From Vairimorpha apis BRL 01 (lineage: Eukaryota; Microsporidia; Nosematidae), in contig KE647219.1 in the NCBI GenBank assembly GCA_000447185.1, positions 1-15,696 on the forward strand: DNA of 15,696 nucleotides, in the 5' to 3' direction. This document shows positions 379 to 15,470 of the stretch, piece after piece. How positions within the stretch are numbered: the first letter of the stretch is position 1; each line of letters begins with the position of its first letter. The notes beneath the pieces are model-generated. The model saw only the letters and a program-made list of their open reading frames with translations, ran no database searches and was not told the DNA's origin. The position numbers and the translations under genes are program-made.

Positions 379-3115
379 ATGTACAGTATAATAATATTAT
401 TAATTAAATTTCTAAAATCTACAAACACTAATACAAAATTAAATCATCTAATATATAACAGAATGATTGATTTTAATAATTGCTAGAGTGGATGACGTAA
501 TTGACACAATAATAACTAAACAAATACATATTAATAAAGTTGTACAAAATGATTTGGGTTTAGATGAATGTGATAATAAAATGATTGATGAACAGATTAG
601 TGTTATGTTAAATTATAGTAATATAGATGAACAGAGAAATAATTATATAAAAGGTAATAGAAATTATATTCTAGATGAACAATATAATGTTATGTTAAAT
701 TATAGTAATATAGATGATAGAAATTATAATTTAATAGATTATAAATATTTAATAGATAATCCTCCAAATAATAATAATATAAACATAATAATAGACACAA
801 AAATAAAAACTTTCATCAACAAAATAATTAACAGTATACTACAAAATAATTATATCTGTTTATCAATAAACAAAATGATAAACATATTTGTTAACGAATT
901 AATAAATACAAATATAAATGAATTAATAAATACAAATAATAAAATATATAATAATTTAAACAGATTTACAAATAATAAAATATACAACAATAATTTAAAC
1001 AGATTTACAAATAATAAAATATACAACAATAAAATACATTTTACAAATAATAAAATTTACAACAAAAAAAAAATATAAAAAGAATCTTTCTAATAAAATT
1101 TTATGTTTATTAGAATCAAATGATAGAAAATTTATAGAAAAACAAAATGGTGAGTATTTTTTAAAGGATGATAAATTAGAATTTGATAATGTTTTGGATG
1201 ATGTTATAGAGTTATATGATTTTGAAGTTGGTAAATGTAAAAATAATTTGTATATTAGTAAAGAAATGATTTTGTTGCAAATTGTTGATTATTTTGAGGG
1301 GAATTTAGATAATGATAGATTTAAATTATATAATCCTGAAATAGAAAATATTTCAAACACTGATAGTTTAAAATTATTTAATATTGAAAGTGATAAAAAT
1401 TTAGATAATTGTTTAAAATTATATAATAGTGAAATAGAAAAAAATGTAAATACTAATTCTGATTTAGTGAATAGTGAAATTGATAAATTTATACTAATTT
1501 TGATTTAGTGAATAGTGAAATGTTTAAATAATAATAGTATTGAATTATATAATTCTGAAATAGAAAATATTACAAATAATATTTATAAACCATTTAATAC
1601 TGAATTAGAAAATAACAAAATTAAAAAATTAAATTTAGTGAAGATTTTGAAATAAAAGAGCATTATATCACAAAAATTAAAAATAAATCAAATTTATATG
1701 AAAATAAAAATACTGTTAATATTGATATTAATAATGAAGTTATAAATAATATGAAATTTAATGACAATAATACTGATATCAACAAAGATGAAATTTTTGA
1801 ATATAAAATTGATTATAATAAAGAACAAAAATTTAAGAACAAAATGATAATATTAACGAAGATGAAATCTTAGAATATAGATTGTTAATCATGAAATTAT
1901 AAACAATACAAAATCAAAAAAATTAGAAGAACAAAATAATTCTGATATTAACAAAGATAAAATTTGTGAAAATAAAATTGAAAATAACAAAGAACAATAC
2001 AGTAATACAAAATCAAAAAAATTAGAAGAACAATATAATAATACAAAATCAAAAAAATTAAAAGACAATAAAATTGAAAATAACAAAGAACAAAATAATA
2101 ATACAAAATCAAAAAAATTAGAAGAACAATATAATAAAACAACATCAAAAAAATTAAAAGACAATAAAATAAAAAATTGTTATTTCGAAAAAATTAATAA
2201 AAATCAAGAAAATCCAGAAAATTCCAAACAATTTTCATTTTTTATACAATTAATACAAAAAGATTTATTAAATATCCTAAAAATAAAAAATAAATATTTT
2301 TTAAAAGAAGAAATATTAATTAACAAAATAATAAAAAAAATAGAAAATCCCAAATTTTTTCCTTTAAACGTTGATAAATTAACAAATATACTAAACAAAT
2401 TATTAAATACAACCAAAAACACACAAACATCATTAAATAATGACAAACAAAAAATAATAAATAATATTTTAAAAACAAAATACATATATAAAAATTCAAC
2501 CAAAAACACACAAACATCATTAAATAATGATAAACAAAAAATAATAAATAATATTTTAAAAACAAAATACATATATAAAAATTCAACAAAAGAAAAAACA
2601 TACATTATACATTAAAAAACAAATATAACCAATTTTATATAAGACTAAATAAAGAAATAATATCACTAGATGACATTTTTAATCGTACAATTATATATAT
2701 TAAAAATATTACTGATAACAAAATTAAACAATTATTTATTTTTGGTTTACAAAATGCAGTACTTTATGATAAAAATAATAGATATCCTAGATTTTTAAAT
2801 ATTTTAACTTTATTATATATTTTTGATAAAGATAATAAATTATATAATTGTTGTTGGCATCATAATTTTTTTAAATTGTTGACTATGTATAAATTTCAAG
2901 AGATACATAGTTATTTAGCTAATTATATATTTGAAACTAATAAATATAAATTTTATCATTTATATATTATTATGAATACTTTTAATGTTATTGATGCTTT
3001 AAATTTTTATAAGGATATTAAAAATAATATAATTGAATTTCAATGTATTAATGATTTGATTGATTTGGTTAATAAAGTTAAATGTTGGTTGTTTGGTATT
3101 AATATTAATGTTTGA
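379..3115 (+). CDS. Gene A: frameshift-interrupted large protein, unrecognised family, paralogue of gene B
   Basis: No known family recognised. I place the start at ATG 379 (MYSIIILLIKFLKS...), a hydrophobic, signal-peptide-like N-terminus directly behind CCT, because gene B begins the same way (CCC, ATGTAC). The plus strand stays protein-like to TGA 3113-3115 but only across frame changes. These lie near 471-474, 1064-1073 (A10), 1488-1491, 1518-1520, 1634-1636, 1841-1844, 1877-1882 and 2593-2598 (A6). Three need one base fewer and five one base more, giving roughly 910 residues. Open pieces include 467-1078, 1194-1508, a long one from about 1884 to 2615 without a useful ATG, and a final one from about 2612 to 3115. 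The middle is Asn/Lys/Glu-rich with repeats (LYNSEIE, NTKSKKLEEQYN, FTNNKIYNNNLNR). The C-terminal part matches gene B. Minus-strand ORFs at 1889-2605 are shadows. Alternatives: a pseudogene, or an intact gene with assembly indels. Confidence 0.66.
951..1065 (+). repeat. ~39-bp coding tandem repeat in gene A
   Basis: A 39-bp (13-codon) unit, read as FTNNKIYNNNLNR, is repeated about two and a half times and then degenerates (FTNNKIYNNKIH, FTNNKIYN). The period is a multiple of three and the reading frame is kept, as expected of a translated low-complexity region. It ends at the A10 run where the open frame breaks. Confidence 0.7.
1960..2165 (+). repeat. Lys/Glu/Asn-rich coding repeat in gene A
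   Basis: Blocks reading NTKSKKLEEQYN, NTKSKKLKDNK and IENNKEQ alternate several times in one plus-strand frame. The pattern predicts a charged, probably extended or coiled-coil segment just before the conserved C-terminal region. The same DNA gives Leu/Phe-rich minus-strand frames (1889-2164), which I regard as antisense shadows. Confidence 0.65.
2229..3112 (+). other. Conserved C-terminal region of gene A (shared with gene B)
   Basis: Read across one A-run frameshift (2593-2598), this region aligns by eye with the end of gene B. Matching blocks are QKDLLNILK (B: EKDLFTILK), FGLQNA (B: YGLQNI), PRFLNILTLLY (B: PRFLNVVTTLY), a single Trp in a similar place, and the terminal NKVKCWLFGININV (B: NKVKSSLFGIPYV). 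It is predicted mostly helical, with Leu/Ile/Phe/Tyr at regular spacing. I do not recognise the domain. Confidence 0.7.
2410..2583 (+). repeat. 87-bp in-frame tandem duplication inside gene A
   Basis: The unit starting CAACCAAAAACACACAAAC at 2410 is repeated at 2497, an offset of 87 bp (29 codons). The copies are nearly identical (GACAAAC against GATAAAC in one spot). A third start of the unit appears at 2584 and is cut off at once. Both copies read NNDKQKIINNILKTKYIYKN in the same frame. Gene B lacks the insertion, so the duplication is recent and specific to gene A. Confidence 0.8.
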
Positions 3116-3324
3116 AAATTAAACTTTTATTTGAAGGTTAATTTCATTATTCTATTATTTTTTTCCCTTCCGTATCAAACGAGTTCACTTAGAATATATT
3201 AATGTTTGAAAATAAATTAATTTAGAAAATTTGATTTTTTATTTTAAAGTGATTAAATTTTTTTTACTACAATTATTTAGTTGAAATTTATATTGTATTA
3301 TTAATATAAAAAATTTTATAACTA

Positions 3325-3650
3325 AAAATGTAATTAATTGAGCAAAGATAAATTTTATTATTGTTTTTGATACAAATATTTATTTAAATTTTTTTATATT
3401 CTAATTGTAATTATTAATTTTATATTAAAAATGCAATTTACTGTGCAAAGATAAATTTTTATTATTACAAACATCTATTCAAAAAAAATATATTGTAATT
3501 GTAATTTCTAATTTCATAACAAAAAATGCAATTTACTGTGCAAAGATAAATTTATTATTATTACAAACATCTATTCAAAAAAATATATTGAAATTGTAAT
3601 TATTAATTTTATATTAAAAAAATGCAATTAATTGAGCAAAGTTTATATTC
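3325..3650. repeat. Tandem ~95-bp repeat array
   Basis: Four imperfect copies begin with AAAAATG(C/T)AATT near 3327, 3428, 3524 and 3619. Each carries GAGCAAAG or GTGCAAAG shortly after. The two central copies also share TTACAAACATCTATTCAAAA and then ATATATTG(T/A)AATTGTAAT. The outer copies are more diverged and the last is truncated. Confidence 0.75.
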
Positions 3651-4230
3651 TTGAAAAACTATAAATCAACCATTTTTAATAAATTGTAAAATTTAGTTTT
3701 TAAATACAAATGTTTCAATAATATAATTAATAACAAAATTTATAATTTATTAAATTGGTTCATAAATAACAATATTATTTTAATATTTTAAACAAATAAC
3801 TATGTTGAATAAATATTTTTCTGTTTAATTGTACTTTAATTATTATAGTATAAATTGATATTCATTTTTTCTATAAAAACATAATGTTATGTAAAAATTA
3901 TTTATCAATTACAGATTATAATTTTATGATAAATTAAAAATGGCCGAATATATTAAAATTTTTTCATAAAAGAAATTAAATTTACCAAAAATTTATAATT
4001 ATTTAATAATCAAAATGTATTTTTTTTAAAATTTATATCATTTTAATAGTAAAAAAATGAATTTTCTATTTATATAAAATATTAAAAAAAAAACAAATCC
4101 TTTTAATATAATTACATATAGCAAAACTTAATATTTTATGTATTTTTATCTTGTAGTATACATATTTTGGATTTAAGTTAAAATATTTAGTTTTATATAT
4201 TAATTGTTTATAAAAAAAGAATAAATATTT

Positions 4231-4735
4231 TTTCATATCAAATCAATGATATTTAAAAAATTAATAAAAAAAATTTTATCTTACAGTTAAAATTAACATT
4301 TAATGTTTTTATGTTTTTATATCAAATCATTGATTATTTAAATTGTTTTAAATATTAATCAAAGAAATTGCAATCTTACAATAAAATTAAAGTTTTAATG
4401 TTTTTATTTCAGACCAATAATTATATTAATTACATTAAAGACATTTTATTTTATATAAAAAAAATATCAATTTAATTTTAATTGTAAAAATTTCTTTAAA
4501 TAATCAATGATTTGATATAAAAACATTAAAACATTAATTTCAATTGTAAAAATTTCTTTAAATAATCAATGATTTGATATAAAAACATAAAAACATTAAA
4601 TGTTAATTTTAATTGTAAGATTAAATTTTCTTTAATTAATTTTATTAATAATCATTAACTTGATATAAAAATTAAACAAATGTTTTATATAGATTGAAAT
4701 TTCTTTAATTAATTTATAAATAATCATTGATTTGA
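4231..4735. repeat. Inverted-repeat array of ~60-90-bp units
   Basis: The left side carries TTATATCAAATCATTGATTA-type units near 4231, 4318 and, more degenerate, 4401. The right side carries the reverse complement (TAATCAATGATTTGATATAA) near 4501 and 4561, with degenerate copies near 4650 and 4715. The best pair, about 4262-4343 against about 4556-4640, is nearly complementary over some 80 bp, including TTAACATTTAATG and CTTACAGTTAAAATT. The dyad centre is near 4450. This could form a long hairpin, be a non-autonomous inverted-repeat element, or be a local inverted duplication. It ends ~150 bp before gene B. Confidence 0.75.
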
Positions 4736-4883
4736 TAAAAAACAATATTATTAATTTAAATATTTAATAACATAATACCAGTTTAACATCACAATCCAAA
4801 TTGTTTAAACTTACATGTTAAATCATCCATTTTAAATAAAAAAACAATAAATTACTAAAAAATATAAAATTTTATATTTTAAT

Positions 4884-4891
4884 CTCCCATG
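4884..4891 (+). promoter_or_regulatory. CCC start-proximal motif of gene B
   Basis: CTCCC directly abuts the ATG at 4889. The surrounding DNA is almost pure A/T, so the three C residues stand out. Gene A has TCCT at the same position. CCC tracts near starts are described in AT-rich microsporidia. Confidence 0.6.
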
Positions 4892-6577
4892 TACATTCTT
4901 TTTATTTTAATAATTAATTATTCTATTCAAACATTTATTATATTTAATGATAACAATAACAAAAACTATAATAAACAAAAATTTGTTAATTTAAATGAAC
5001 AATCTTTATTAAAATTAAATAACATTATTAAATTAAATTCAGATAAGCAAATTAAATACGTTTTACAAAACAGAAAATTTAATTGTAATGAAAATTTATT
5101 ATTTATTTATAAAAAAATTGCTTATAATAGTTTTGATAAAGAAAAACTTGCGAAAGTTGAAAAGATTTTGAAATTTATTTTAGATAAACAAATTAATTAT
5201 GTTTTAGAAAATAAAATTATTTCGAAATTATCTAAAGATAAAAATTTAATTGATTATAAAAAGTCTTATAGGTTAGGTTATTCTGTAAAAGATAAAATTA
5301 ATAATGAAAATTATTTGTTCAATAAAAAATTTATAGATGAGAAATATATAAATAATTATGAATTAAATGAAGATAATAATCAGAAACCCGATTATATAAA
5401 TCAATTTAAAGAAATAGAAACAAATAAAAAATTAATTGAAGATAATAAACAGAAACTTAATTCTACATATATAAATCAAATAAATAAAGAATTTAATGAA
5501 GATAATAAACAAAAATCTAATTCATTATATATAAATCAATCCAAAGAAATAGAAACAAATAAAAAAGTTAATAGCATAACAAATAAAAGTAAAATTTTTA
5601 CAAGAAATTTAAATAAAAATCAAAACGAAATACTAACAATAGAAGAAAATAATAAAAAACATATTCAAAATTTTTTGTCTTTCGATGAACAGTTTTTAAA
5701 AAAGAAAAAATCAAATATAATATTATAATTGACGAAAATTTTTTACATAATATCTACAAATCAGATTATTTTAAAGAATTTATTAACGTATTTTTTATTA
5801 TAGAAAAAGATTTATTTACTATATTAAAAAATGCATATTTTTATATTTATTATGGAAATGAATTAATAGCAGACATTTTAAATAAATTTAATACAGAAAA
5901 AACTCTTATTGAAAGAATATCATTATTTTTAGATGTATTAAAAAAGTTAGAAAATTTTAATACTTTTAACATGAATATATTAAATGATGAAAAAAGTTTA
6001 TTAATTGAAAATTGTCTTAAGAATCATTTTTATAAATCTTATGAAAATAATAAAGTACTTAATAAAACTAAATCATCTTTATCAAAATTTAGACAACGTT
6101 TAATTAGACAAATTTTTGATTTAAGTGAAGTTTTAATATATCTTTCAAAAATATTAAATGAAATACCAGATAGAAATTTTCATGCATTAGTTTTGTATGG
6201 TCTACAAAATATTTTTAATAACGATTCGTATTTAAATTTACCTAGATTTTTAAACGTTGTAACAACTTTATACACCTATAAAAATGAACGTAATTTATAT
6301 TCTGTTAATTGGGATTTGACTTTATTTAGAATTATATGTTTTTCTAAATATGGAAAAAAACAAATAATTTTTGTCAAAGAATTTTTGATAGGATTTTTGA
6401 TAATAAAAAAAATGTATCTCGTCGTTTTTATTTAGTTTTAAATTCTATTTATATTGATCCTTTGTTAGATGATTATGAAAAGATAGAAAGAAATGAAAAT
6501 GTTTTAAATTTTTTATTTGTTTAATTATTATGTTAAATAAGGTTAAAAGTAGTTTGTTTGGAATACCATATGTTTGA
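4889..6577 (+). CDS. Gene B: paralogue of gene A, unrecognised family, frameshift-interrupted
   Basis: The start at ATG 4889 is chosen for the adjoining CCC and the hydrophobic N-terminus (MYILFILIINYSIQTFIIF), which looks like a signal peptide or anchor. The first open piece (4889-5728, 279 codons) is Asn/Lys-rich with repeats of about 25 residues (EDNKQK...YINQ...KEIETNKK). Three single-base losses then break the frame, at A6 5705-5710, T5 6382-6386 and T6 6509-6514. Allowing for them the protein runs about 563 residues to TGA 6575-6577. All three repairs have the same sign (one base missing). From about residue 290 it parallels gene A to the final residues. The protein is presumably secretory if the N-terminus is a signal peptide. 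Alternatives: a recent pseudogene, or an intact gene with homopolymer errors. Function unknown. Confidence 0.72.
5767..6574 (+). other. Conserved C-terminal region of gene B (shared with gene A)
   Basis: About 270 residues contain EKDLFTILK, YGLQNIF, LPRFLNVVTTLY, one Trp (VNWDLTLF) and the ending LNKVKSSLFGIPYV. Conservation between the two genes survives in exactly the frames obtained after correcting the homopolymer breaks, which supports those corrections. The piece 5971-6435 is the longest uninterrupted part. Confidence 0.7.
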
Positions 6578-7746
6578 GTTAAATTTTTTGATATACAATA
6601 TAATTTTCATAATAAATTTATTAAAAGAATATTTTTTTATACATTATAATTTTTTTAATATATTTATTATTAAAATATTTACATAATAAATTTATTAATA
6701 GAATAATTCTTTTTATACATTATAATTTTTAAAATATATTTATTATTAAAATATTTACATAATAAACTTATTAATAGAATAATTCTTTTTATACATTATA
6801 ATTTTTAAATATATTTATTATTAAAATATTTACATAATAAATTTATTAATAGAATAATTTATTAATAGAATAATTCTTTTTATCATTATAATTTTTATAA
6901 TATTATTTATTATTAAATGCATTTTTTGTATATATTATAATTATATTAATAATTTATTAATGTAAAATATAATTTTCATAATAATAAATTTTTAATATAA
7001 TTTATTTAGTTTTTATAAAATCAATATATTAATTTAATATAATTTATATTATAAAATTAAAATTATTTCTTAAAATTTGTTTTATTTAAATCAAAGAGTT
7101 ATTTTAATTTTGTTCTTTAACATTTTTAATATATTAAATAGTTTATTTTTTAATTAAATATAAGAATTGAAAAATTTTTTAATAAAAGATATGTAAATAA
7201 GAATTCTATTAAAAAAATACTATATTTAATAAAAAAAATAATTTATTTTAAAATAATTTAAAAAAATCTCATATTTAAAAATTATTTAATTTGTTTTCAT
7301 TAATCTAATCTATCAGTTTAATTTATTTGTCTTAAAAATATCAAAATAAAATATCTTAGTATCTAATTTAAAATTTAAAATTTTAATCTTTTAAGCAATA
7401 AAAATAACAAAAAATAAAAGAATTTATTAAAAATCAAATAATTATTTTTTTTAAAAACACATCTTTAATTAAAGATTATAAATCAATAAAAATTATACAA
7501 TTTGTTTTTATTATTTTTCTACTTTTTAAAATCATATTTTTAATATAATTTATAAAAATTTACTGAAAAATTAAAAAAAAATATTTTTATACACAAAGTT
7601 TAAACAACTTTTTAGTTTAAAAGTATTAAAATATGTCATCTAATAACAAAAAAAATATTTAAACAAACATTTTTAAAATCTTCAATTTAAAATTTAATTC
7701 TAATAAATAAAAATCAAAACGGCTGAATCAAATCAATATTTTTGAA
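6578..7746. other. Intergenic region between genes B and C
   Basis: Apart from the ~75-bp tandem array at its left end I see only AT-rich DNA with many A and T runs and no supported gene. A small less AT-rich patch, AACGGCTGAATCAAATC near 7718, lies ~80 bp before the gene C start and may belong to its promoter. The CCC motif of the other genes is absent here. Confidence 0.55.
6609..6905. repeat. Tandem ~75-bp repeat array, four copies
   Basis: Copies start with CATAATAAA(T/C)TTATTAA at 6609, 6682, 6758 and 6833 (offsets 73, 76, 75). Each includes AGAATAATTCTTTTTATACA and later TATTTATTATTAAAATATTT. The fourth copy has an internal ~19-bp duplication (ATTTATTAATAGAATAA twice). It begins 30 bp after the gene B stop. 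Confidence 0.82.
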
Positions 7747-7790
7747 ATGAAACAAAATTTGAAACAAATATGAATAAACATTCATTTTAA
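7747..7790 (+). promoter_or_regulatory. Two short upstream reading frames before gene C
   Basis: ATG 7747 opens an 8-codon frame ending at TGA 7771-7773. ATG 7770 overlaps that stop and opens a 6-codon frame ending at 7790, nine bases before the gene C ATG. If transcription starts upstream of 7747 these could affect initiation at 7799. If it starts closer they are irrelevant. Confidence 0.3.
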
Positions 7791-7798
7791 AATAAATC

Positions 7799-10000
7799 AT
7801 GCATTTACTTCTTTTTCTTTACACAGAATTATCCTTTCAATCTTCAATGCTATGCCACGAAACAATGAGCGATTTACTAAAAAATACAGGTTGTGCAAAA
7901 GGAGATAATACAGGTTTAAGTGATTTTATGGCATCTCCTACAGCTAAAAAAGTTGTTTGTGGTGAACCTTTACAAGATAAATGTGAAAATGATTATATTC
8001 AAAAAATGAACTCATTTAATAATGTGCCTAGAAATAAATCAAATTTAGGATTTAGTAATAATTGTGATGTAACTAGTGTAAAAGAAAATTATCAAAATTG
8101 TGAAGGACATAGTAATAATTTACAACATTTGAATTATCCTATGCAACCTTTACAATCTACTTATCAAACACCATCTCAACCTCTTATTTTACCAATACAA
8201 CCAAATTCTCAACAAATACAAAATCAACCTCAATTAAGTTCACAACAATTTTGTAATTCAAATATTTCTCAACAGCAATGTATACCACAACAAAATTCTA
8301 TTCAACAACCTGTTCAATTTTTTCAACCAAAAGAAAATACAAAACAATCTTATAATCAACAAAATAATTGTTTAATAAACGAAATGCCGAATCATAATTT
8401 AGAAAATAATTTTTGTCAAACAAATTCTAATATTAGTCCTGAAATAGATTTACGTTTACAGCCTAGTGTATCACCAATTATCACCTATTCTCAACCAGTA
8501 CAACAACCTTTATTTGTTCCTCCTGTTCAACCTATGCCTCAACCTATTCAACAACAATTTAATCAACCTATTCAACAACAGTCATCGTATCAGCAACAAT
8601 GCAATCCTTATATTAATCACCAACCTAAACAACAATATTGTATGCCAAAAACATATCAACCAAATTATGATTGTAATTTAACATACAGACAAACTAATTG
8701 TAAACCTCAAAGACATTTACAACAGATGTGTGAAAATCAAATTATTAACAATTCTAATAACAGGTCAATTAGATACAACAATAATTGTAGAGAAAATTAT
8801 GATATTTGTAATAATACACGTAGATACGACAATAATTGTAGAGAAGATAATTTTAAAAAAGAAAATCATGATATTTGTAATAATACACGTAGATACAACA
8901 ATAATTGTAGAGAAGATAATTTTGATATTTGCGAAAATGAAGGACGTAGACGTAAAAATGAAAATAACTATTATGATGATTACAACAATAATCAATTTAA
9001 TAAAGACAGAAACGGTTCAATCATATTTAATGAAAGTGATAATAATCAATTTAATAATGGCAGATACGTTCCTAATAATACTGATGAACGTGAATTTAAT
9101 TATTTACTTAAAGAAGGAATTCTTGTAATACAACCAGGCACTGATTTACACAGAAAAGTATCTAAAATATTTAAAGATAATAGAACGATAAAAGTTTCGA
9201 ATTTGGATAATAAACTTAATGATGATAGAAATGGTAGATTAACAAAAGATAATGTTTATGATGATAGAAAAAGAAACCGAAGTTATGATGATACAGATTC
9301 TAATGATGACTATACAAGACGTAGAAATCGTAATAATGATTATGAATCGGATGAAAACGACAGAAGACGTCGAAATAGAAATAAAAATGGAAATCGAAAT
9401 TACGATTCTGATTCCGATGAAAAATATACAAGACGTCGTAATAAAAAAAGAAATTCTAACAATGATGATTCAGATTCAGATGAAAGGTACAATAATAGAA
9501 GAAATAATGATGATGCTGATTTAGAAACTCAAAATGTTTTCCAAGATAACAGAATTAAACCACGTAAAAAGTCTTCTTATTTACTTAATAAATCTTTTGT
9601 TAAATCTAATAACAAAAAAACAGATAATAAATTAAAAAATAGTAAATTAAATGAAAAATCTAAATTTTATAAACTGAGTAAACTTAAAAATCAAGACCAG
9701 CAGAATAATAACGAATCAAATGATAAACAGAATAGTAACAATAATAACCAAAACGAAAAGAATAATAACCAAAATGATAAACAAGAAAACAATAATCAAC
9801 CTGAACCAGAAATTACAGTAGAAGTAAATCTAGATGATGATAAAGCTAATGTTAATGTAAATAATAAACAAAAAAGTAAAGTGAATTTAGATAATGATAA
9901 AGAACAAGAAGAAGATTTGGATGATGATAAAAAAGAAGATAATATGAAAGATGATAACAAAGAAGGTTACTTGAAGGAAAAAAAATTATATAAAAAATAA
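7799..10000 (+). CDS. Gene C: intact 733-residue Gln/Asn/Cys-rich protein with charged C-terminal half
   Basis: I do not recognise this gene. The N-terminus (MHLLLFLYTELSFQSS) has a short hydrophobic stretch that could be a weak signal peptide; Met17 or Met23 are alternative starts. Residues ~20-100 are less biased, with scattered Cys. Residues ~110-310 are Gln/Pro-rich (QPIQQQ, QQPLFVPP) with Cys roughly every 10-30 residues. Residues ~323-378 repeat DICNNTRRYNNNCRED about three times. Residues ~430-470 (LLKEGILVIQPGTDLHRKV) are the most ordinary-looking globular part. Residues ~490-570 alternate RRRN with DSDSDE, possible casein-kinase-2-type sites. Residues ~585-630 are Lys-rich and the end is Asp/Glu/Asn-rich. 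Despite 7-8-base A runs the frame is unbroken, unlike genes A, B and D. A Cys- and Gln/Pro-rich composition would suit a spore wall or polar tube component, while the charged half would also suit a nucleolar protein; neither is demonstrated. Confidence 0.88.
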   Translation: MHLLLFLYTELSFQSSMLCHETMSDLLKNTGCAKGDNTGLSDFMASPTAKKVVCGEPLQDKCENDYIQKMNSFNNVPRNKSNLGFSNNCDVTSVKENYQNCEGHSNNLQHLNYPMQPLQSTYQTPSQPLILPIQPNSQQIQNQPQLSSQQFCNSNISQQQCIPQQNSIQQPVQFFQPKENTKQSYNQQNNCLINEMPNHNLENNFCQTNSNISPEIDLRLQPSVSPIITYSQPVQQPLFVPPVQPMPQPIQQQFNQPIQQQSSYQQQCNPYINHQPKQQYCMPKTYQPNYDCNLTYRQTNCKPQRHLQQMCENQIINNSNNRSIRYNNNCRENYDICNNTRRYDNNCREDNFKKENHDICNNTRRYNNNCREDNFDICENEGRRRKNENNYYDDYNNNQFNKDRNGSIIFNESDNNQFNNGRYVPNNTDEREFNYLLKEGILVIQPGTDLHRKVSKIFKDNRTIKVSNLDNKLNDDRNGRLTKDNVYDDRKRNRSYDDTDSNDDYTRRRNRNNDYESDENDRRRRNRNKNGNRNYDSDSDEKYTRRRNKKRNSNNDDSDSDERYNNRRNNDDADLETQNVFQDNRIKPRKKSSYLLNKSFVKSNNKKTDNKLKNSKLNEKSKFYKLSKLKNQDQQNNNESNDKQNSNNNNQNEKNNNQNDKQENNNQPEPEITVEVNLDDDKANVNVNNKQKSKVNLDNDKEQEEDLDDDKKEDNMKDDNKEGYLKEKKLYKK
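8765..8932 (+). repeat. Coding repeat with conserved Cys in gene C
   Basis: The unit CGTAGATAC(A/G)ACAATAATTG with following AGAGAAGATAATTTT encodes RRYNNNCREDNF and recurs in frame at irregular spacing, preceded by HDICNNT or YDICNNT. Each unit keeps two Cys (DIC and NNC), suggesting selection on the Cys spacing rather than on bulk composition alone. Confidence 0.65.
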
Positions 10001-10150
10001 TCTTTAAATCGTTTAGCTTATGAAAAATGCATCTATTTTAAGAAGAACTTTTGAAAAAATAATAATGTTGTATAGAAAACAAATTATTTTTTTGAATTTG
10101 TAAATGTTTATTTATGTAAATATTATTTTTAAAATAAAATTAGAATGTTT

Positions 10151-10285
10151 TTAGAATTTAAAACTTTTATGTTTATTGTAGATGTGTATTTTAGTAAAAT
10201 ATTATAATCAAATTAAAATGAGAATTTTGTTAGAATTTAAAACTTTTATGTTTATTGTAGATGTGTATTTAAATAAAATATTATT
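10151..10285. repeat. 79-bp tandem duplication
   Basis: The segment TTAGAATTTAAAACTTTTAT followed by GTTTATTGTAGATGTGTATTT occurs at 10151 and again at 10230 (offset 79). It continues into TAAAATATTAT in both copies. More than 40 bases are essentially identical, which marks a recent duplication. Confidence 0.82.
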
Positions 10286-10408
10286 ATTAATATAAAAAGA
10301 TAATTTTACTAATAAAATATTATTTGTTTTTATCTTATTCAAAAATATCATATTAAAATTTATCAAAAATATTAATTAATCATTATAAATGAATTTAATA
10401 AGATTTAA

Positions 10409-10585
10409 TATTTTTAAAAGTATTTTATTGATATAATTAAACAATAAAAAATTCAATAATTTAAATGTTATTACTTTAATAAATTAATTATTAAAAATAA
10501 ATTTTAAAAATTACAGATTTTTAGAAGTATTTTATTGATATAATTAAACAAAAAAATTCAAGAATTTAAATGTTATTACTTTATT
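10409..10585. repeat. ~107-bp tandem duplication
   Basis: TTTTTA(A/G)AAGTATTTTATTG then ATATAATTAAACAA, and later AATTTAAATGTTATTACTTTA, occur from 10411 and again from 10518. The two copies differ by a few substitutions and small A-run length changes. Confidence 0.75.
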
Positions 10586-10843
10586 TAAATTTAATATATT
10601 TACTACTTAAATATTAATTTCTATTTAAATTAAAAATATTATTATATATATAATTTATTTATAAACATATATTTTAATTATGCACATATTTTAGTTAAAA
10701 TATAACTTGTCACAATAAAAAAATACAAGCATAATTATTATTATAATATATGTTTTATTCACAATTTATAAAAAATTTCAGTTATAATAATTTTAAATTT
10801 TATAATTGTAAAAAATACTTTCAATTTTTTTACTATACATTTT

Positions 10844-11012
10844 AAAACATTTTTTAAATTATTTTTTTTATATTTTAAATTTTACTATTAAAAACATATA
10901 AATAAAACTAGTATATAAAACATTTTAAAATTATTTTTTTAATATTTTAAATTTTACTATTAAAAACATATAAATCAAAATAGTATATAAAACATTTTAA
11001 AATTATTTTTTT
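10844..11012. repeat. ~72-bp tandem repeat, about two and a half copies
   Basis: AAAACATTTT(A/T)AAATTATTT begins at 10844, 10917 and 10989 (offsets 73 and 72). The first two copies share AAATTTTACTATTAAAAACA and TATAAAT(A/C)AAA(A/C)TAGTATATA. The third copy fades after the T run. Confidence 0.78.
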
Positions 11013-11126
11013 ACTTTATTATTTATAACATTTAAATATAAAAATATAACGTTTTAAAAAATACGACGGATTTTTTATACTGTAAACAATATATAAAAAT
11101 AATATAGATTTACAATTAATATTTAT

Positions 11127-14053
11127 TTACATAACACTCCGTTTTAATAACCCAACAAGCTCTAAATATTCATAATCTCTATCTTTGTTCTTAACATGTA
11201 AAACAGGATCAGTTCGACTTTCCAATTTATATTCACGTAAAGAAGTTTCAAATCGTTGTTCTTCAACACTTAATAACTTAAAATATTTGTTAAAGTACAT
11301 TTTTAAATCTTCTTTGTTTTTATTAGGAAAATGTTCTACCATATTTCCCCATTTTTTGTTATAATAACTATAAAATACGGCGAAAAGCTGTTGTTCATCC
11401 TTTGACCAATCTTTTTTGTTGAATTTTTTAGCCTCTGGTTTTTTAATCTTCTTTAAATAACACAATAAATATATTCTTAAGTCTTTTATGCTTTTTAAGA
11501 TAAATTTTTGGTATTTAGAAACATTCTTTCCAAAAATAGGATATTTGAGATGAAAAATATCTTTTTCTTCTTGTGTCCATTCTTTATCTATAATTAAATT
11601 CATTTCTTTGTCACTTATTCTTCTATTTTTCTTTTTAATATAATTGTGAGTCTTATTTTTATTTAAATAGTAGTTGTAGACAATGTCTTGCATACTTCTG
11701 TTCTTCATGTTCGAGTGAATACAATCAAGATTATTTTTAAATTTTAGAACTAATTTTTTAAATTCTTTCAATTCGTCTCCGACAAATTTAACACTATTGA
11801 AATCATCTTTTATTGTTGTTTCCTCAATCATTAATTTTGGAGTTTTAGTGGTATTAATATTATTGTATTCTTTATTTGTGTCTATATTACTAGTATTAGT
11901 GATATTATATATTGTATTTGTATCCAGAATATTATCTTCATTTATTATTTTATTAAGATCATTTTCTGTTTTGATATTTATTTTATTGTTATCTTCTATT
12001 TGATTTATATAAGAATTCATGTCTCCATTATCACTGATGTTTGTATAAGTATCTATAAAATTATCATTAATGTTATCACTATCTTTTATATTATTGATCC
12101 TATATTCTGGATCTAATAAAGTAGCTTTATTTATTATAGATTTATTATACAAAATTTCTTCATTATATTTTATGAATTCAAGTGGAGAATTGAAATTTTT
12201 ATATAAATTGGGTTTGGTTCTTTAAAAATAATAAATATCTTTTATCTTTACTTAATTCTTCTAATCTTTTACTATTTGCAGATTCAAATTCTGAGTTATA
12301 TAAAATTTTCTCTATTGTTTGATTGTCTAAAAGACCATTTTTATTAAACGAATCTTGTAAATTTGAATTTTCTAAATTTATAGAGTCTATTGATTTAGCA
12401 TTCGAAATGTCAGAGGATTTACTATTAGTGCTATTTGATGATTTAGCTTTTGATTTGTCTATTGATTTGGTATATGAAATGTCAGAAGATTTACTATTAG
12501 TGCTATTTGATGATTTAGATTGTGATTTGTCAAAAGAAATGGTTTTTGAATTATCTGTTGATTTACTTTTAGTGCTACTTGAAGATTTAGTTTTTGAATT
12601 ATCTAACGATTTTAATTTAATTGAGACGGATTTTTTAGCTTTTGTAGAATTTATTTTTTTATTTTTTGAAGAAATTATCTTTTTATCTTTTGTAACATTC
12701 AAATCAGTATTTTTTGTAAAATCAATTTCTTTGATTTTTATAGAATCCAAATTTTCATTATGTGTATTTAAAATTTCATCCTGTATATCAGATTTACTTA
12801 TTTTTAATTTAATACTTGTAGTACCATTTATTGTGTCAACAGGAATAATGTGATTATCATTTAATTTTCTAAGTGTAAATTATTTGATATTGAAAATTCT
12901 AAATGTTGTTGTTCAGGTGAAATTTTGTTATTTTCTAAATCAAGAGAAATTATTTTATTTTTATTATTTTTTCTTTTTGTTATAGTTGTTGTTTCAGCAG
13001 TCTGTTTAGTTTCTCTACCGTAAAATTTTTTATGCTTGCTGGTTTTTCTTCAAACAATTTATTTTGTAAATTTTTTCTATTTTATCTAATTCTAAATTTG
13101 TTTCATCAATTTTGTCTAATTTATTTGTTACTAGATTATTTACTTCCAAACTTGTTTCATTAATTTTTTCTTTGTTATTGTAATTTTTTAATTTATTTTT
13201 TTTTATAACTTTTAGATTTTGTAACTTTTCTTTTCTTTAACTTTTATATTTTTACTCTTAACTTTTTTCTTAGTATTCGTTATTTTGTCAACATTATTTT
13301 TATCTTCATGCATATTTTCTTCTTTATTAAGTAACAATTTGTTAAGTTCGGTTTCTTTATCAATATATTTATCATAATTTTCAGTATTAAATTCTTTAAC
13401 ATTTTTATTCCTTTCCTCATCATTTATCACAATATTGTTTTTTGTATTACTTATGCATTCTTTTTCATCAACAATTCTTTCATTAATAAATTTTTTTTTG
13501 CAAACTCTCTCATATAAATTTCTTTTAGGTTTATTAGTTTTTTCTTGTTGAATTTCTTTCACTTCATAAATAAAACTTTCACTGATAGTATCGTTGTCTT
13601 TTTCTTCCATTTCAACTTTTAAATCACAAATTTTAGCTTTTTTAACATTAGAATCCACATCTTGTTTCAGATCATTTTTAGATATAAACTCATCACTACA
13701 CTTTCTTTTTTTAGTATTATTTTTATCAATTACATTATTTTCCATGATTTCAAATCCAGATACTAATCTTTCTTCTTTTCCTATCATTACATTCACTAGT
13801 ATAGTAAAAATCAATAACTTTTTCATTTATAGTCCCCACATCAATTTCTATTACGTCTATTATCTTCATTAAAATTTATCATTTGAATTGATTTTGCATA
13901 AAATTTATCGTAATCAACATACATTGATCTAGGTTCTCTTAATTCATTATTTAAATAATCATTCCTATCAGAACTTGAATAATAATTTATAATTTCTGAG
14001 TTTATTTCGTTTACTTCTATTTCATCGTATGTTTTATTAGAAGTTAGTTTCAT
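11127..14053 (-). CDS. Gene D: frameshift-interrupted ~975-residue protein with C-terminal SANT/Myb-like domains
   Basis: I read one minus-strand gene from ATG 14053 (MKLTSNKTYDE), 10 nt behind a CCCC tract, to TAA 11127. An ATG at 14074 is in frame. Open pieces are 14074-13841, 13826-13212, 12750-12199 (extending to ~12868) and ~12220-11127. Missing-base breaks fit at T runs (plus strand) 13226-13229, 13071-13076, 13026-13031 and 12865-12868. An extra base (or two missing) fits near 12221, and the 13875-13785 join may need two more changes. The N-terminal two thirds is Lys/Glu/Asn/Ser-rich and disordered, with a Ser/Lys repeat. The last ~240 residues are globular with two SANT-like folds, so a chromatin or transcription role in the nucleus is inferred. 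ATG 13826 gives a signal-like MKKLLIFTILVNVMIG, the main argument for separate genes, but it has no CCC and follows a stop. Alternatives: pseudogene, two or more genes, or assembly indels. Confidence 0.6.
11274..11585 (-). other. Tandem SANT/Myb-like domains in gene D
   Basis: The first domain starts EWTQEEKDIFHLKYPIFGKN and ends RIYLLCYLKKIKK. The second starts DWSKDEQQLFAVFYSYYNKK and continues WGNMVEHFPNKNKEDLKMYF. Both show the W-(T/S)-x-(E/D)-E start, an aromatic mid-helix pattern and a third helix ending in Tyr/Phe-rich plus Lys, as in SANT domains of corepressor-type proteins. Just upstream, FKNNLDCIHSNMKNRSMQDI followed by VYNYYLNK resembles the second half of another SANT domain whose first helix I cannot see. 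Exact subfamily (NCoR/Snt1-like, CoREST-like or other) is not resolved. Confidence 0.62.
12404..12518 (-). repeat. 72-bp Ser/Lys coding tandem repeat in gene D
   Basis: Plus-strand segment GAAATGTCAGA(G/A)GATTTACT continuing to TTTGATGATTTAG lies at 12404-12446 and 12476-12518, an offset of 72 bp (24 codons). On the minus strand both copies encode KSSNSTNSKSSDIS. Degenerate Ser/Lys units extend the pattern to about 12620. The minus reading is the real one; the plus-strand ORF here is its antisense shadow. Confidence 0.75.
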
Positions 14054-14609: not shown

Positions 14610-14879
14610 ATGCATGAAAAACCAATCATAAAAATCAAAAAAGTCAATTTAGTGGGAATGTGGTCACCAGACATGCAAGTAGAGACTTGTGCTATATGTA
14701 GAAATCACATAGGAGATACGTGCGTTGAATGTCAGAACGGCCTTAAACGAGGAGAAGTTTGCAGCGTGTCTTGGGGCACTTGTAATCATGCTTTTCATTC
14801 TCATTGTATTACAAGATGGTTAATGAGTAAAAATGTTTGTCCGCTTGATACTAAGCCATGGGAATACTATAAGCCTTAA
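14610..14879 (+). CDS. RBX1: RBX1/ROC1-type RING-H2 subunit of cullin-RING ubiquitin ligases
   Basis: An 89-residue intact protein. In this family the RING binds the E2 (or NEDD8-loading) enzyme and the N-terminal strand packs into the cullin, so it is the catalytic core of SCF-type ligases in nucleus and cytoplasm. Visible features are a short N-terminal strand (IKIKKVNLVGMW), CAIC at 27-30, the RNHI and CVEC (38-41) second site typical of RBX proteins, C51, C58, H60, H63, H65, C66, W70, then CPLD (C77, D80) and WEYYKP at the end. The Asp as last ligand (CPLD) is characteristic of RBX1/RBX2. WGTCNHAFHSHCITRWL is close to the RBX1 consensus, favouring RBX1 over RBX2/SAG or APC11. Relative to animal and yeast members (~108-121 residues) the N-terminal tail is shortened, and the loop before C51 is about two residues shorter. 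Base composition is less AT-rich than its neighbours, consistent with strong constraint. Confidence 0.93.
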   Translation: MHEKPIIKIKKVNLVGMWSPDMQVETCAICRNHIGDTCVECQNGLKRGEVCSVSWGTCNHAFHSHCITRWLMSKNVCPLDTKPWEYYKP

Positions 14880-15140
14880 TGGTTAATAAATAGAGAAATG
14901 TATATTAATGTGATGTATTATTAAACGATTTGTATTCTACTAAAAAAAGTATAAATAAATTTTTTATATTAATTTTTGTTACATATTTTTTTTATTAAAT
15001 ACATTTTAAATAGTTTATAGCAATTTTATAATTTAATGAATTTTATTTTAGTTTTTATAGAAATTATAAAGAATTTTTAAAATATTTTTGGAAATAAAAT
15101 TTATGAAAATTTTAAATACTTTAAACTACTATATAATATT

Positions 15141-15325
15141 AAAAATTCTTTTTAATTTACTATATTAAAAAATAAGAAAAATAAAATAATTTTAAATGCT
15201 AAAAATATTTTTAAAAATTCTTTATAATTTACTATATTAAAAAATAAGAAAATTTATTAAATTATAAATACTAAAAATATTTTTAAAATTCTTTATAAAT
15301 TGCTATAAAAACTAAAATAAAATTT
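15141..15325. repeat. ~72-bp tandem repeat, three copies
   Basis: AAAAATTCTTT(T/A)TAATTTACTA followed by TATTAAAAAATAAGAAAA starts at 15141 and 15213. A diverged third copy (AAATTCTTTATAAATTGCTA) starts near 15284. Offsets are 72 and 71 bp, and AATACTAAAAATATTTTTAAA sits between the copies. Confidence 0.75.
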
Positions 15326-15470
15326 ATTAAATTATAAATACTATATATATTGAAAAATTATAAATATTTTAAGACTATAAAAAAATTATAAATTTTTAAA
15401 AATCTTTGTAAAATAAAATTTTCAAATCAAAAATAATAATTTTTTGCAACAAATTAATTTAAAATTTTTG

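What the first reader, a model, noticed from the sequence alone, without database searches (positions are those of the whole stretch)
379..6577. Tandem pair of paralogous genes of an unrecognised family
Genes A and B share the start context (CC(C/T) + ATGTAC), a hydrophobic N-terminus, an Asn/Lys-rich repetitive middle and a C-terminal region of ~270-290 residues. Shared motifs include (Q/E)KDL..ILK, GLQN, PRFLN..T.LY and a terminal NKVK..LFGI...V. The middle parts have diverged into unrelated repeats while the ends match. That is the pattern of a lineage-specific surface or secreted family under diversifying repeat turnover.
Basis: partly seen in the sequence, partly recalled or inferred. Interest (0 to 1): 0.75.

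Follow-up and report, generated by a model that had tools for sequence, protein, structure and literature searches.

The report
Secreted-protein gene family in a microsporidian
Two neighbouring genes belong to a family of some 30 to 40 probably secreted proteins in a microsporidian parasite, joined by one shared helical end domain with no known relative; such lineage-bound families are common in these parasites, so this is a new example of a known kind.

Summary
Genes A (379-3112) and B (4889-6574) share a C-terminal domain of about 275 residues. A profile of 15 non-window copies finds four pieces of A and B at E 2.5e-44 to 2e-8; A against B beats 1000 of 1000 shuffles. It is a family, not a pair: four searches of the window's own 5.96-Mb assembly give 41 loci on 25 contigs, 31 found by two or more queries; 16 of 16 same-contig neighbours share a strand. 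A and B are deeply diverged members, with no sign of a recent duplication. The organism is in the Nosema/Vairimorpha clade. No Pfam match and no convincing PDB match by sequence or fold was found; two models are all-helical. N-termini look signal-peptide-like, on hydropathy alone. CC(C/T)ATG is not a family mark; it also precedes uL4. Both genes are frame-broken here, but a public protein reads gene B open across its first break, so that break is probably an assembly error or strain difference. Best reading: a lineage-specific, secreted, probably host-exposed family; secretion and host exposure are inferred.

The parts
379..3112 (+). Gene A, a family member; frame broken in this assembly (I take it as pieces 379-483, 467-1075, 999-1505, 1512-1652, 1625-1870, 1881-2612, 2579-3112)
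   Evidence: stop-free segments; domain pieces; that the N-terminal pieces belong to the same gene is by position
379..440 (+). Hydrophobic N-terminus of gene A (MYSIIILLIKFLK...), signal-peptide-like, directly after CCT
   Evidence: 9-residue Kyte-Doolittle maximum 3.1
896..2177 (+). Low-complexity tandem-repeat middle of gene A (39-, 45-, 41- and 96-nt units)
2220..3103 (+). Conserved C-terminal helical domain of gene A, in two frames (2220-2582 and 2585-3103); holds an 87-nt x 2.2 repeat at 2405-2591
   Evidence: leave-window-out HMM, model 7-126 and 98-274; repeat
4889..6574 (+). Gene B, a family member; frame broken in this assembly (pieces 4889-5725, 5689-6432, 6348-6521, 6497-6574); public protein P0008, the same gene, reads open across the first break
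4889..4950 (+). Hydrophobic N-terminus of gene B (MYILFILIINYSIQTFIIF...), signal-peptide-like, directly after CCC
   Evidence: 9-residue Kyte-Doolittle maximum 3.2
5418..5539 (+). 60-nt x 2 repeat in the low-complexity middle of gene B
5770..6574 (+). Conserved C-terminal helical domain of gene B, in three frame pieces
   Evidence: HMM model 8-217 (5770-6399) and 204-256 (6357-6515); last motif NKVKSSLFGI read; helical model of piece 5743-6432

Best explanation
Genes A and B are two deeply diverged members of a large gene family of a Nosema/Vairimorpha-clade microsporidian. Each protein most likely enters the parasite's secretory path by an N-terminal signal peptide (inferred from hydropathy), carries a fast-changing low-complexity linker of very variable length, and ends in a compact all-helical domain of about 275 residues (shown by profile; helical by two models). 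With no conserved cysteine column and no catalytic-looking residue set, the domain most likely binds a partner rather than catalysing; most likely the proteins are exported to the host cell or the parasite surface, and many diverged copies give a panel of binding variants (inferred). Copies lie in same-strand arrays and in multi-kilobase similar blocks (shown); whether a block pair is a duplication or two haplotypes is open.
For: Homology. Copy number: 131 hits of four queries collapse to 41 loci on 25 contigs, 31 found by 2 or more queries; 12 contigs carry 2 or more copies, and 16 of 16 same-contig neighbours are on one strand (chance 1.5e-5 if orientation were random). Public assemblies hold intact members of the same build: P0001 463 aa, P0003 447 aa, P0004-P0007 375-376 aa. 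N-termini: 9 CC(C/T)ATG starts were taken as family starts; 8 of 9 have a domain piece within 3 kb downstream (L032:4133 has none). Their 9-residue hydropathy maxima are 1.3 to 3.5. Only C165 is open from start to domain end in this assembly; B is linked by P0008, and C222/C35 by P0002; the rest are linked by position. P0003 begins MFIILLLFFSLATSASA. Domain: P0004 model pTM 0.74, ten-residue pLDDT means 70-93 over residues 91-310 and 321-370; B-piece model pTM 0.63, nine helices in the same order and of similar length. No cysteine among columns at 70% or more (columns filled in at least 10 of 17 rows). Restriction: 11 proteins found, all of lgn/ena sources, among the 7995 candidates scored from 5.77 billion, while uL4 of this genome finds Vairimorpha bombi, V. 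necatrix and Nosema granulosis there. Reinke et al., PMC5423893 (passages read): 68 large families, 59 of 68 not found outside a genus or species.
Against: No SignalP-type prediction, expression or localisation data. The hydropathy contrast is weak: 8 other CC(C/T)ATG frames in the same scan score -0.8 to 2.5, so four of the nine family values (1.3, 1.3, 2.2, 2.2) do not stand out, and P0004-P0007 reach only 1.1-1.9 in the first 30 residues, below the 2.6 found elsewhere in them. On my grouping, 6 of 31 well-supported loci keep the domain open in one frame (8 of 31 on a looser 80% span that lets in B and C211), against 15 (strict) to 20 (lenient) of 26 kinase loci (Fisher p 0.018 to 1.7e-5 over these choices), so part of the family may be dead. 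Recent copies show no clear purifying selection. Absence elsewhere is weakly tested: word-seeded, capped candidates, and lengths limited to 0.55-1.75 of the query (about 153-486 aa, 255-810 aa).
Confidence: 0.64

Rival explanations
1. The family is mostly a graveyard: a few live genes and many pseudogenes spread by block duplication, A and B among the dead.
For: Both window genes are frame-broken; 6 to 8 of 31 supported loci keep the domain open while 15 to 20 of 26 kinase loci do; recent copies evolve near neutrally.
Against: Broken loci have intact public counterparts: B as P0008 (100% over 204 aa, 96.7% over 274 aa; open across the first break only, it ends before the later ones) and C58 as P0003 (100, 90 and 98.8% in three pieces); C35 and C9 have near but not identical ones, P0002 (93-94%) and P0006 (89-97%). 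Some kinase genes are broken in this assembly too. AT-rich low-complexity genes are likely to suffer indel errors (inference).
Confidence: 0.2
2. The family is carried by an uncharacterised transposable element, as Cornman et al. 2009 suspected for unknown multigene families of N. ceranae.
For: Five such N. ceranae families were noted and suspected to be elements (PMC2685015, passages read); block similarity here reaches 6.3-6.5 kb at 89-90%.
Against: No transposase, integrase or reverse-transcriptase domain in 17 domain copies; hydrophobic N-termini; members mostly 25-35% identical with variable linkers; same-strand arrays; blocks hold DNA beyond the gene. Flanks were not scanned for such domains, and terminal repeats were not tested.
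Confidence: 0.07
3. The proteins are structural parts of the parasite (spore wall or polar tube) instead of host-exposed effectors.
For: Signal peptides and low-complexity repeats also mark spore-wall and polar-tube proteins (recalled); the next gene, 7799-10000, is a 733-aa Q/N-rich frame of that look (resemblance recalled).
Against: About 40 diverged copies are unlike the few, more conserved polar-tube proteins (recalled); no Pfam match.
Confidence: 0.2

Closest known systems
Large gene families of microsporidia (Reinke et al. 2017, PMC5423893; passages read), e.g. NemLGF1 and NemLGF5 with signal peptides
   Same: At least 10 members in one genome, signal-peptide-like N-termini, no known domain, apparent lineage restriction
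   Different: Other genus; no sequence comparison with the NemLGF families was made; no proteomic evidence of host exposure
Five unknown multigene families of Nosema ceranae (Cornman et al. 2009, PMC2685015; passages read)
   Same: Same clade, at least 10 members, no database homologues
   Different: Almost all of those lay on contigs of 500-1000 bp and were suspected transposons; their alignments (Text S4) were not available here, so identity with this family is untested
Encephalitozoon interB and DUF2463 families (named in PMC2685015)
   Same: Unknown-function multigene families restricted to few microsporidia
   Different: No Pfam family matched more than 1 of 17 members, best E 0.0037
Unique secreted genes of Vairimorpha bombi (PMC10989860; passages including most of the abstract read)
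   Same: Lineage-specific genes enriched in secretion signals in a relative
   Different: That report counts unique genes; at least one V. bombi protein is in the searched database, but no named V. bombi protein was among the 11 hits

Membership tests
Microsporidian large gene family (Reinke et al. 2017 definition) | at least 10 homologous members in one genome | tested here: met
   41 loci from four queries, 31 hit by 2 or more
Microsporidian large gene family (Reinke et al. [quoted passage not shown]
   nine CC(C/T)ATG starts with hydropathy maxima 1.3-3.5 against -0.8 to 2.5 for 8 other frames; no SignalP, no genome-wide baseline
Microsporidian large gene family (Reinke et al. 2017 definition) | not found outside the genus or species (true of 59 of 68 families) | tested here: inconclusive
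   11 hits, lgn/ena sources only, unnamed; V. bombi, V. necatrix and N. granulosis uL4 are in that database; search is word-seeded, capped and length-limited
Host-exposed effector family | protein found in host cytoplasm or nucleus | not testable with these tools
   needs proximity labelling or imaging
Known Pfam families (incl. LRR, ricin B, interB, DUF2463) | profile match to the domain | tested here: not met
   best single-member E 0.0037, no family in more than 1 of 17 members; no match over cut-off in the five window pieces of A and B scanned
Known folds of the PDB | significant structural match | tested here: inconclusive
Transposable element | transposase, integrase or reverse transcriptase in the repeated unit | tested here: inconclusive
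   no such Pfam hit in 17 domain copies; linkers of other copies and flanks were not scanned
Transposable element | terminal repeats or target-site duplications | not tested
   none

The most novel reading that the evidence does not exclude
The C-terminal domain is a fold not yet seen in a solved structure, used as a secreted binding module by one microsporidian lineage; a subset of members (C165, C58, C204 and the public protein P0002) carries a shared basic, nuclear-localisation-like motif P(F/L)KKR(K/R) in the N-terminal third (residues 64-81 of P0001-P0003), so these would be exported proteins bound for the host nucleus.
Probability: 0.15. Interest if true: 0.6.

Novelty: new member of a known kind. 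Interest (0 to 1): 0.35.

Why it matters
If the proteins are host-exposed, the conserved helical domain is one handle on some 30 to 40 otherwise unannotatable loci of a parasite in the clade that includes the bee parasites V. bombi and V. ceranae, and one structure would serve the whole family. It also warns that shared CC(C/T)ATG starts are no evidence of gene kinship in microsporidia, and that frame breaks in such AT-rich genes should be checked against reads before calling pseudogenes.
Full report
What was checked. The window is a whole contig (C135, 15,696 bases) of an unnamed assembly of 5,960,447 bases in 223 contigs. Its uL4 protein is nearest to chain LC0 of entry 6rm3 among solved structures (572 bits; next 7qep at 416 and 6zu5 at 356). 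6rm3 is the V. necatrix ribosome (uL4 chain LC0 named so); the species of the other two entries are recalled as E. cuniculi and Paranosema locustae. Among proteins the named uL4 relatives are V. bombi (78%), V. necatrix (75%) and N. granulosis (69%); four unnamed lgn matches stand at 99, 89, 76 and 69% (listed at E 1e-130 or better). So it is a microsporidian of the Nosema/Vairimorpha clade, species not identified. The window is 17.0% and the 182.5 kb of fetched family loci 16.1% G+C.

The observation. A and B are open only in pieces in different frames: I take A as seven pieces and B as four. A and B C-terminal pieces score 132 against a shuffle mean of 56 (sd 9.3, maximum 96, n 1000). The strongest test leaves the window out: a profile of 15 other copies finds A 2579-3112 (2.5e-44, model 98-274), A 1881-2612 (2e-11, 7-126), B 5689-6432 (6e-42, 8-217) and B 6348-6521 (2e-8, 204-256) among 849 stop-to-stop segments. 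The domain runs over about 2220-3103 in A and 5770-6574 in B (and the last motif).

A family, not a pair. Searching the own genome with the B piece gave 24 matches, with P0003 40, with the C223 member 30 and with P0002 37. The 131 hits collapse (same strand, gaps up to 450 bases) to 41 loci on 25 contigs; 31 are hit by two or more queries; A and B are each hit by all four. The tool states that such counts are lower bounds; on the other side, 10 loci rest on one query each. Twelve contigs carry two or three copies, and 16 of 16 same-contig neighbours are on the same strand. A tree of 22 members puts A and B in a weak group with C165 (82/42), 3.73 changes per site from each other; B is flagged as a long branch (2.24), so its place is unsure. 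Array neighbours on C58 and C222 fall in different starred groups, and the three of C211 in two starred groups and one lone branch. So arrays hold old, diverged lineages. Blocks of 6.3 kb (C9/C6, 89%) and 6.5 kb (C222/C35, 90%) are shared; these may be segmental duplications or diverged haplotypes. Polyploidy with diverged haplotypes is known in the clade (V. necatrix, tetraploid, pseudo-haplotypes 96% identical, PMC10759460, passages read).

Anatomy. Intact public members (P0001 463 aa, P0003 447 aa, P0004-P0007 375-376 aa) have a more or less hydrophobic N-terminus, a K/N-rich variable part and the domain. Nine CC(C/T)ATG starts were taken as family starts; 8 of 9 have a domain piece within 3 kb downstream on the same strand, L032:4133 has none. 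The frame is open from start to domain end only in C165; B is tied to its domain by P0008 and the C222/C35 first genes by P0002, the others by position. Hydropathy maxima are 1.3-3.5 for these nine and -0.8 to 2.5 for the 8 other CC(C/T)ATG frames of at least 25 codons printed by the same scan, so the contrast is suggestive only. P0003 starts like a textbook signal peptide (recalled pattern). The same start signal precedes uL4, so it is general; the start of the P0003 locus on C58 lacks it. P0001, P0002, P0003 and a C204 segment share P.KKR(K/R) (0, 1 and 2 of 2000 shuffles for the three proteins); P0004, P0007 and P0008 lack it, and it is not found in the fetched C222 and C35 loci. It looks like a nuclear localisation signal, untested. 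Among the best-conserved domain columns are G337, F342, P351, L360, E366, W374, Y415, N419 and K455 of P0001; no cysteine is among the columns at 70% or more. AlphaFold2 models of P0004 (pTM 0.74, mean pLDDT 71.5, N-terminal 82 residues mostly under 50) and of the B piece itself (pTM 0.63, mean pLDDT 71.6) show nine helices in the same order (P0004 109-131, 137-147, 152-168, 179-189, 200-217, 224-237, 241-255, 265-282, 287-295; B piece 10-34, 40-49, 55-71, 82-92, 105-121, 127-140, 144-154, 169-185, 190-198). The two alignments share 12 of 13 rows, so the models are not independent; of five models for the B piece three had mean pLDDT under 60. No significant fold match was found, no Pfam family, and by PDB sequence only a borderline I-MsoI match that I take as chance.

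Are the genes alive? Both are frame-broken here. P0008 (lgn, 5 member sequences) is gene B, 96.7% over 274 aa and 100% over 204 aa, open across B's first break; it ends before the later ones. C58 has the intact counterpart P0003; C35 and C9 have near counterparts P0002 (93-94%) and P0006 (89-97%). No public counterpart of A was found, but A would exceed the length limit of the searches made. Breaks in this assembly are thus at least in part errors or strain differences. Against this, 6 of 31 supported loci (8 on a looser count) keep the domain open, compared with 15 to 20 of 26 kinase loci as I grouped them, and 20 of 20 scored AAA matches show no stop inside (a shorter domain). Selection estimates are weak: dN/dS 0.78 and 0.46; in one block coding rates (4.6-5.1%) are like the gap between the genes (4.2%) and half of the upstream DNA (11.0%). 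I read this as a living but fast-changing family with some dead copies.

How it most likely works. Shown: homology, copy number, same-strand arrays, domain. Inferred: secretion, host exposure, binding role. The pattern (many copies, apparent clade restriction, signal-peptide-like N-terminus, no known domain) is the one that Reinke et al. found enriched among experimentally host-exposed proteins of Nematocida (PMC5423893, passages read). Rivals are structural spore proteins, a mostly dead family, and a transposon-borne gene as Cornman et al. suspected for N. ceranae families (PMC2685015, passages read).

Novelty. A new member of a known kind. I found no name for the family in the searches made (papers; Pfam; PDB; proteins), but it could be one of the N. 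ceranae families of 2009, whose alignments were not available here. Interest is moderate to low unless the fold proves new or the basic-motif subset proves to enter the host nucleus.

Noticed in passing
window 7799-10000 (+): 733-aa open frame, Q/N-rich N-terminal half and K/D/N-rich C-terminal half, starting MHLLLFLYTELSFQSS; looks like a polar-tube or spore-wall type protein (recalled resemblance); no Pfam match.
   Followed up: partly
window 13212-13826 (-): 204-aa frame with a signal-peptide-like start (MKKLLIFTILVNVMIG) followed by KKRK, similar in layout to the basic-motif family members but not matched by the family HMM; 12199-12750 (-) with 24-residue repeats may be a further piece of it.
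   Followed up: no
window 11127-12152 (-): Frame with a Myb-like DNA-binding domain (PF00249, E 6e-9); true start not determined.
   Followed up: no
window 14610-14879 (+): RING-H2 protein of Rbx1/APC11 type (best PF12678 zf-rbx1, E 9.5e-22), preceded by CCCTCCAAAT, another C-rich start.
   Followed up: no
window 3257-3641, 6603-6882, 10098-10307, 10369-10600, 10843-11013 and 15105-15359: AT-rich intergenic tandem arrays with units of about 72-107 nt.
   Followed up: no
L022 (C9) 1442-7644 with L035 (C6); L031 (C222) 2270-8639 with L032 (C35): Blocks of over 6 kb at 89-90% identity that hold family genes: segmental duplications or uncollapsed haplotypes.
   Followed up: partly
G000 kinase loci C95, C12, C140 (two), C172, C102: Kinase-domain loci split over frames or with stops inside in this assembly, so indel errors or real decay reach beyond the family.
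   Followed up: no
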